Part shown: in pieces, positions 40,330 through 40,357 of the stretch
Numbering within the stretch: position 1 is the stretch's first letter
Layout: every line of letters starts with the position of its first letter
NCBI RefSeq assembly: GCF_001634285.1
Contig: NZ_CP015438.1
Coordinates: 1,934,001 to 1,998,000, forward strand
Direction: 5' to 3'
Origin: Anoxybacillus amylolyticus
Lineage (GTDB): Bacteria > Bacillota > Bacilli > Bacillales > Anoxybacillaceae
DNA: 64,000 bases
Position numbers and translations under genes: made by a program
Notes under the pieces: generated by a model
Seen by the model: only the letters and a program-made list of their open reading frames with translations
Databases searched by the model: none
Told to the model about the DNA's origin: nothing

Positions 40330-40357
40330 AGTTTACATAACACTTATTATAGGAAGT
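40330..40357. other. dif: Chromosomal dif site (XerC/XerD recombination site)
   Basis: 28 bp. On the minus strand the arms read ACTTCCTATAA and TTATGTAAACT around the 6-bp centre TAAGTG. From memory, the Bacillus subtilis dif has arms ACTTCCTAGAA and TTATGTAAACT; only one arm base differs and the centre differs, as expected. It lies exactly where gene orientation switches from rightward to leftward, 6 kb from rtp. It resolves chromosome dimers at division. Confidence 0.87.

What the first reader, a model, noticed from the sequence alone, without database searches (positions are those of the whole stretch)
40330..40357. dif site exactly at the gene-strand switch
Arms ACTTCCTATAA and TTATGTAAACT flank a 6-bp centre. 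All but one arm base agree with Bacillus dif as I recall it, and the main direction of transcription flips at this point. This places the terminus to within a few hundred bases.
Basis: partly seen in the sequence, partly recalled or inferred. Interest (0 to 1): 0.75.

Follow-up and report, generated by a model that had tools for sequence, protein, structure and literature searches.

The report
Composite dif site at replication terminus

Summary
Window 40330-40357 is dif, read on the minus strand as ACTTCCTATAA|TAAGTG|TTATGTAAACT. It is unique in the 3.16-Mb genome at two mismatches or fewer. The cumulative GC-skew maximum of the surrounding 400 kb lies 225 bp from it, and the main coding strand flips there. 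Xer genes and dnaA are present.

The new point is next to it. On the XerC-arm side, at 40371-40404, lies a 34-bp inverted repeat, TCTCA-N6-AAGTAWACTT-N7-TGAGAY. A rule-based scan of 120 dif sites with these exact arms found it in 61 of 69 Bacillaceae/Planococcaceae-type sites and 0 of 51 others (Staphylococcaceae, Listeria, Clostridia). It was never found on the XerD side. It is nearly always single-copy and dif-linked. Its distance from dif takes only discrete values (about 3/4, 13, 22/23 and 33 bp), near helical steps. It travels with dif on Bacillus plasmids and three 162-166-kb phages, but is missing from many other dif-like sites. Neighbouring genes do not explain it.

I infer a protein-binding accessory site acting on Xer recombination or terminus handling. 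The binding protein is unknown and function untested. Key subscription papers could not be read, so novelty is provisional.

The parts
40330..40357 (-). dif: XerD arm 40330-40340, 6-bp centre 40341-40346, XerC arm 40347-40357
40371..40404 (+). 34-bp dif-adjacent inverted repeat TCTCA-N6-AAGTAAACTT-N7-TGAGAT, 13 bp after the XerC arm; core 40382-40391
40424..40457 (-). G+C-rich hairpin followed by T-rich DNA on the minus strand, probable terminator of the small gene to the right; context only, separate from the element
   Evidence: read from sequence
40516..40704 (-). small conserved gene, about 62 aa, TTG start with Shine-Dalgarno-like sequence, conserved right neighbour of dif in the family; context only
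46345..46719 (-). replication terminator protein (RTP) gene; terminus context

Best explanation
Shown: 40330-40357 is the single chromosomal dif at the replichore boundary, and in Bacillaceae/Planococcaceae-type bacteria dif is normally half of a composite of roughly 75-85 bp whose other half is a 34-bp inverted repeat on the XerC-arm side. Inferred: the repeat is bound by an unidentified host protein, probably a dimer or larger given the near-palindromic core and outer repeat. It sits on a preferred helical face relative to XerC bound at dif, and contacts or positions the XerC/XerD synapse or bends the DNA, so as to license or bias XerC-first recombination or hold two dif sites together. It would work like the accessory sequences of the plasmid sites cer and psi, and could stand in for direct activation by an FtsK-type pump.
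For: dif. Element: right flanks of 120 dif sites contain the core in 64, left flanks in 0, shuffled right flanks 0.1 on average. By the 34-bp consensus at up to 5 mismatches: 61/69 Bacillaceae/Planococcaceae-type sites, 0/31 Staphylococcaceae, 0/6 Listeria, 0/14 others. Specificity: one copy in G000; in relatives, hits at 2 mismatches or fewer whose dif was also located lie beside dif, except one in G023. Spacing: core offsets fall only at 15/16, 25/26, 33-35 and 45 in 130 sites, best period about 9.5-9.75 bp. Co-travel: dif plus element on Bacillus, Cytobacillus and Terribacillus plasmids and phages PJN02, 2S-4 and FADO. Negative controls: many secondary dif-like sites lack it. XerC-side genes are not shared across these genera. 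Element intact where a dif arm has diverged: G033 XerC arm, G056 XerD arm. Background: PMC5357621 states that SftA and SpoIIIE are not known to activate CodV/RipX directly and that cer accessory DNA binds ArgR and PepA.
Against: No binding protein, footprint or recombination assay is in hand. The period is nearer 9.5-9.75 than the 10.5 bp of free B-DNA, the 45-base class rests on one genome, and the spacing classes follow lineages, so few independent shifts are seen. Two of 69 Bacillaceae-type sites appear to lack the element. Some sites called secondary may be functional. B. subtilis dif is described as 28 bp (PMC5357621), so the element may be modulatory, not essential.
Confidence: 0.6

Rival explanations
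1. The element is bound by a terminus-handling factor (SMC unloader such as XerD itself, a terminus organiser, or a translocase stop) and does not regulate recombination at dif.
For: XerD is reported to unload SMC in the B. subtilis terminus (cited in PMC13220808, and PMC10945525). The window core AAGTAAACTT shares AGTTTAC (reverse complement GTAAACT) with the XerD arm. Terminus-clustered XerD-type palindromes exist in these genomes.
Against: The element is single and tied to dif at quantised distances, and on plasmids and phages it stays with dif. In most genera the core is AAGTATACTT, unlike the XerD arm.
Confidence: 0.25
2. The element is a transcription signal (operator, promoter or terminator) of a neighbouring gene that happens to lie beside dif.
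For: Inverted repeats are common regulatory sites, and a conserved small gene lies to the right in this family.
Against: XerC-side genes do not form a family spanning the genera. Distance is fixed relative to dif, not to a gene. No T-run follows the repeat on either strand, and a separate hairpin serves the small gene. It recurs on plasmids and phages next to dif.
Confidence: 0.07
3. The element is a fork-arrest Ter site for RTP.
For: An RTP gene lies 6 kb away and Ter sites are terminus-linked imperfect inverted repeats.
Against: It does not match the Ter consensus as recalled, and genomes without a detectable RTP gene (G329, G289, G078, G404, G268) carry the same element.
Confidence: 0.02
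4. The site is an attachment junction of a Xer-integrated mobile element, with the C1:1803880 site as the other end.
For: The left flank is horizontally variable, the centre TAAGTG differs from the usual TTTATA/TTTATG of the genus, and a second dif-like site exists in the same orientation.
Against: Orthologues of the second site at the same gene pair in G002, G003 and G006 are XerD-XerD palindromes. Island edges do not coincide with dif in all comparisons. Right flank and element are orthologous in relatives.
Confidence: 0.03
5. Plain dif; the conserved flank is shared ancestry without function.
For: The members are related bacteria and spacing classes follow lineages.
Against: The rest of the flank is not conserved across genera, while the element is kept with rigid internal spacing, quantised distance and co-travel on plasmids and phages.
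Confidence: 0.03

Closest known systems
B. subtilis dif (Bsdif) with CodV/RipX (XerC/XerD)
   Same: 28-bp layout 11-6-11, XerD arm identical and one XerC-arm base different, at the replichore boundary; the element is also beside dif in genomes whose dif equals the B. subtilis sequence as I recall it
   Different: Centre TAAGTG instead of TATATA; the element is 13 bp from dif here and 22/23 bp there; the literature readable here describes only the 28 bp
Plasmid resolution sites cer (ColE1) and psi (pSC101) with ArgR and PepA
   Same: A Xer core site with accessory DNA beside it; from memory also on the XerC-arm side
   Different: cer has accessory DNA of about 180 bp (PMC5357621) and is plasmid-borne; here it is 34 bp and mainly chromosomal, with no ARG-box likeness seen by eye
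XerD-binding SMC-unloading sites (XDS) of B. subtilis
   Same: Terminus location; part of the core resembles the outer XerD arm in this family
   Different: The element is single and tied to dif; better XDS candidates here are separate XerD-XerD palindromes 39-221 kb from dif
RTP/Ter fork trap
   Same: Terminus; RTP gene present in the window
   Different: Different sequence; element present in genomes without detectable RTP

Membership tests
dif (XerCD chromosome-dimer resolution site) | 28 bp with two 11-bp arms and 6-bp centre matching the clade consensus | tested here: met
dif (XerCD chromosome-dimer resolution site) | Single copy in the chromosome | tested here: met
dif (XerCD chromosome-dimer resolution site) | At the GC-skew switch opposite the origin | tested here: met
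   cumulative maximum 225 bp away; dnaA at C1:191616-192932; C1 is not the whole chromosome, so arm lengths are not known exactly
dif (XerCD chromosome-dimer resolution site) | XerC and XerD genes in the genome | tested here: met
   XerD-model hit over cut-off at C1:2413885 and a second Xer at C1:1445015; that the second is XerC/CodV is inferred
dif (XerCD chromosome-dimer resolution site) | Translocase-guiding motifs point towards it | tested here: inconclusive
   GAGAAGGG 49:16 plus:minus on the ori-to-dif arm and 15:20 on the other (Fisher p 0.002), but the best switch point is 120-200 kb beyond dif
dif (XerCD chromosome-dimer resolution site) | Cleavage and strand exchange by XerC/XerD | not testable with these tools
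   needs an assay
cer/psi-type accessory-controlled Xer site | Conserved accessory DNA at a defined place beside the core site | tested here: met
cer/psi-type accessory-controlled Xer site | ArgR/PepA binding and topological selectivity | not testable with these tools
   no binding or recombination data; not filed as a member
RTP Ter site | Match to the Ter consensus (as recalled) | tested here: not met
XDS (XerD SMC-unloading site) | XerD-arm sequence bound by XerD | tested here: inconclusive
   only partial XerD-arm likeness in the core; the original XDS paper is not held
Xer-integrated mobile element (IMEX) junction | Hybrid attachment sites bounding foreign DNA | tested here: not met

The most novel reading that the evidence does not exclude
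In Bacillus-type bacteria the dimer-resolution site is a composite: a dedicated, still unknown DNA-binding protein sits on a conserved 34-bp element at helix-like distance from XerC and controls Xer recombination or terminus pairing in place of direct FtsK activation, and plasmids and phages have captured the whole unit.
Probability: 0.45. Interest if true: 0.8.

Novelty: new variant of a known kind. Interest (0 to 1): 0.6.

Why it matters
How Xer recombination is timed in B. subtilis and its relatives is open: the translocases are said to position dif without being known to activate the recombinases (PMC5357621). A conserved accessory element makes the question directly testable with small mutations in a laboratory strain and offers a bait for the missing protein. 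It also gives a more specific dif predictor than 28 bp, and separates chromosomal-type dif from many mobile dif-like sites.

Tried and rejected
(1) Second dif or 170-kb integrated element: C1:1803880 looked like an attachment partner, but its orthologues are XerD-XerD palindromes at the same gene pair. (2) Element as RTP Ter site: rejected. (3) Element as promoter or terminator of a conserved gene: not supported by gene-context clustering. (4) Exact full-element scan of viral contigs: 0 hits; phage copies were found only by blastn because their right spacer is one base shorter. (6) GAGAAGGG inside the window: one copy, uninformative. (7) Staphylococcaceae show a different enriched motif at a similar place (GGNNCC in 10 of 30 right flanks, 1 left, shuffle mean 1.2), suggestive only. 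(8) Sciochetti 2001 and Karaboja 2021 are not held. Eight literature searches listed no paper whose title or abstract describes the element; only a few of those papers were opened.

Full report
Check of the observation. The 28-mer is at 40330-40357 and reads ACTTCCTATAA TAAGTG TTATGTAAACT on the minus strand. With the arms fixed and the centre free it occurs once in the window at up to 3 mismatches (0.00 expected) and once in the genome at up to 2 mismatches. The window is C1:1934001-1998000 of a 3.16-Mb assembly in three contigs. The other two contigs are probably chromosomal: C3 carries glmM-, glmS- and rocF-like genes by eye, and both have strong skew. The cumulative GC-skew maximum of the contiguous 400 kb round the site is at window 40569, 225 bp from the dif centre. 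In the sampled stretches skew is positive from about 320 kb to dif and negative after it. dnaA is at C1:191616-192932. A XerD gene and a second Xer gene are present. GAGAAGGG, the B. subtilis translocase-guiding motif as I recall it, is biased 49:16 on the ori-to-dif arm and 15:20 on the other, but its best switch lies 120-200 kb beyond dif, so this support is weak.

Orthology. The site and its right (XerC-side) flank align with the dif regions of six same-genus genomes and of same-family genomes. The left flank is variable: most of 5.4-30.2 kb and of 32.0-40.2 kb is absent from G003 and G006, the two closest relatives by right-flank identity, yet parts are 93-96% identical in G001 and G002, whose right flank is only 78-80% identical. 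DNA on the XerD side of dif has therefore probably been acquired horizontally. The centre TAAGTG is shared with G003 and G006 only among the relatives searched; of 120 dif sites with the same arms none has it.

The element. While comparing flanks I saw a conserved inverted repeat on the XerC side. Their XerC-side 100 bp contain the core in 64 cases, the XerD side in none, shuffles 0.1 on average; in all 64 the core-to-TGAGAY stretch is 22 bases long although the pattern allowed 19 to 26. Scored against TCTCA-N6-AAGTAWACTT-N7-TGAGAY at up to 5 mismatches, 61 of 69 Bacillaceae/Planococcaceae-type sites have it and 0 of 51 others (31 Staphylococcaceae, 6 Listeria, 14 Clostridia and others). Grouping was by the genus in the record title. 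Six of the eight misses show a degenerate or length-changed form by eye. The base frequencies of the 64 are biased by the selection pattern. The window copy is 40371-40404, 13 bp after dif.

Dif specificity. At up to 3 mismatches G000 has one copy. In relatives, hits at 2 mismatches or fewer whose dif was also located lie beside dif; the exception is one hit in G023. G042, G044, G046, G048 and G050 were not checked for dif. In G033 the XerC arm and in G056 the XerD arm has diverged while the element is intact. Genomes whose dif is ACTTCCTAGAATATATATTATGTAAACT, the B. subtilis form as I recall it, carry the element too.

Spacing. Over 130 sites the core starts 15/16, 25/26, 33-35 or 45 bases after dif (14, 25, 90 and 1 sites); the best period is about 9.5-9.75. 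A preferred helical face is the natural reading, with the cautions that classes follow lineages, the last class is one genome, and the period is somewhat short of 10.5.

Co-travel and controls. With a Bacillus-type composite as query, 26 plasmid records match over at least 80% of its length. Sequences read directly show dif plus element on plasmids of B. subtilis, B. halotolerans, B. velezensis, Cytobacillus and Terribacillus and on phages PJN02, 2S-4 and FADO; in several of these the internal spacing differs by a base or the element is more degenerate than the consensus. The element is missing beside a P. megaterium plasmid site, a Peribacillus plasmid site and the Blastoid phage match, the secondary dif-like sites of G012, G016, G021 and G024 and five further dif-like sites (L068, L265, L266, L270, L276). 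Genes within 1.5 kb on the XerC side do not form a family spanning these genera.

Mechanism. Shown: a composite of dif and a one-sided, distance-quantised, dif-linked inverted repeat. Inferred: a protein binds the repeat and works with the XerC-side complex. The nearest mechanistic analogue is the accessory DNA of cer and psi; cer needs ArgR and PepA on about 180 bp of accessory DNA (PMC5357621). The same review reports no evidence that SftA or SpoIIIE activate CodV/RipX directly, leaving room for such a factor. A terminus-handling factor (SMC unloader or terminus organiser) cannot be excluded. An RTP site, a transcription signal and an integrated-element boundary were tested or argued against.

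Side result. Palindromes of two XerD arms with dif-like spacing occur 1-3 times in each of seven genomes with long contigs, all 14 within 225 kb of dif. Under a uniform model with independent sites this has log10 p of about -11.7, but the 225-kb bound was set after seeing the data and the genomes are related, so the figure is only indicative. One of these has a nearly fixed sequence, GTTTACATAACGTTTATTATGTAAAA, across the family. They are candidates for XerD SMC-unloading sites, whose existence in B. subtilis is reported.

Verdict. The original finding is correct and ordinary. The composite structure is the part worth attention. I rate it a new variant of a known kind, provisionally, because the two most relevant papers could not be read.

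Noticed in passing
G000:C1:1803880-1803907 and G000:C1:2041585-2041610 (outside the window): Palindromes of two inverted XerD arms, 170 and 67 kb from dif, with counterparts across the family; 14 of 14 such sites in seven genomes lie within 225 kb of dif. Candidate XerD SMC-unloading sites.
   Followed up: partly
window 5539-24862: Island of defence-type genes; MADS models mad2, mad3, mad5, mad6 and mad8 are among the hits, though not always the best hit (methyltransferase, ATPase, specificity, kinase, HerA). Absent from G003/G006, 93-96% identical over shared parts in G001/G002.
   Followed up: partly
window 25036-27381: Minus-strand protein with a TOTE-type primase domain and a helicase domain beside the defence island.
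   Followed up: no
window 32040-40250: About 8 kb with a cytochrome bd gene cluster (33422-39336), absent between the rubrerythrin-like gene and dif in G003/G006 and 95% identical in G002.
   Followed up: partly
window 27857-29556: One ABC1/UbiB-type kinase gene split over two overlapping frames (27857-28603 and 28426-29556), probably frameshifted.
   Followed up: no
window 46345-46719 and 51962-51990: RTP gene 6 kb from dif and a weak Ter-like sequence containing CTATGTTCTAAAT: an RTP-type fork trap outside the genus Bacillus.
   Followed up: partly
G040:C54:4501 and G040:C54:70228: Two dif-like sites in the same orientation 65 kb apart, only one with the element; could bound a Xer-integrated element.
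   Followed up: no
L129, L169, L176, L203, L205, L217 and others, XerD side of dif: An ORF that looks like a tyrosine-recombinase C-terminus by eye (not run against a library) falls in a cluster of about 20 loci within 1.5 kb of dif, mostly on the XerD side and in several genera.
   Followed up: no
Staphylococcaceae dif loci such as L117, L141, L145, L153: A different GGNNCC-type motif is enriched at a similar place on the XerC side of dif (10 of 30 against 1 on the left).
   Followed up: partly
L297, L298, L299 (phages PJN02, 2S-4, FADO): Bacillus phages of 162-166 kb carry dif plus element.
   Followed up: partly
L002 1530-1680: Well-conserved, possibly structured leader upstream of a CDF-type cation-efflux gene (annotated by eye), conserved in the genus; not compared with Rfam.
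   Followed up: no
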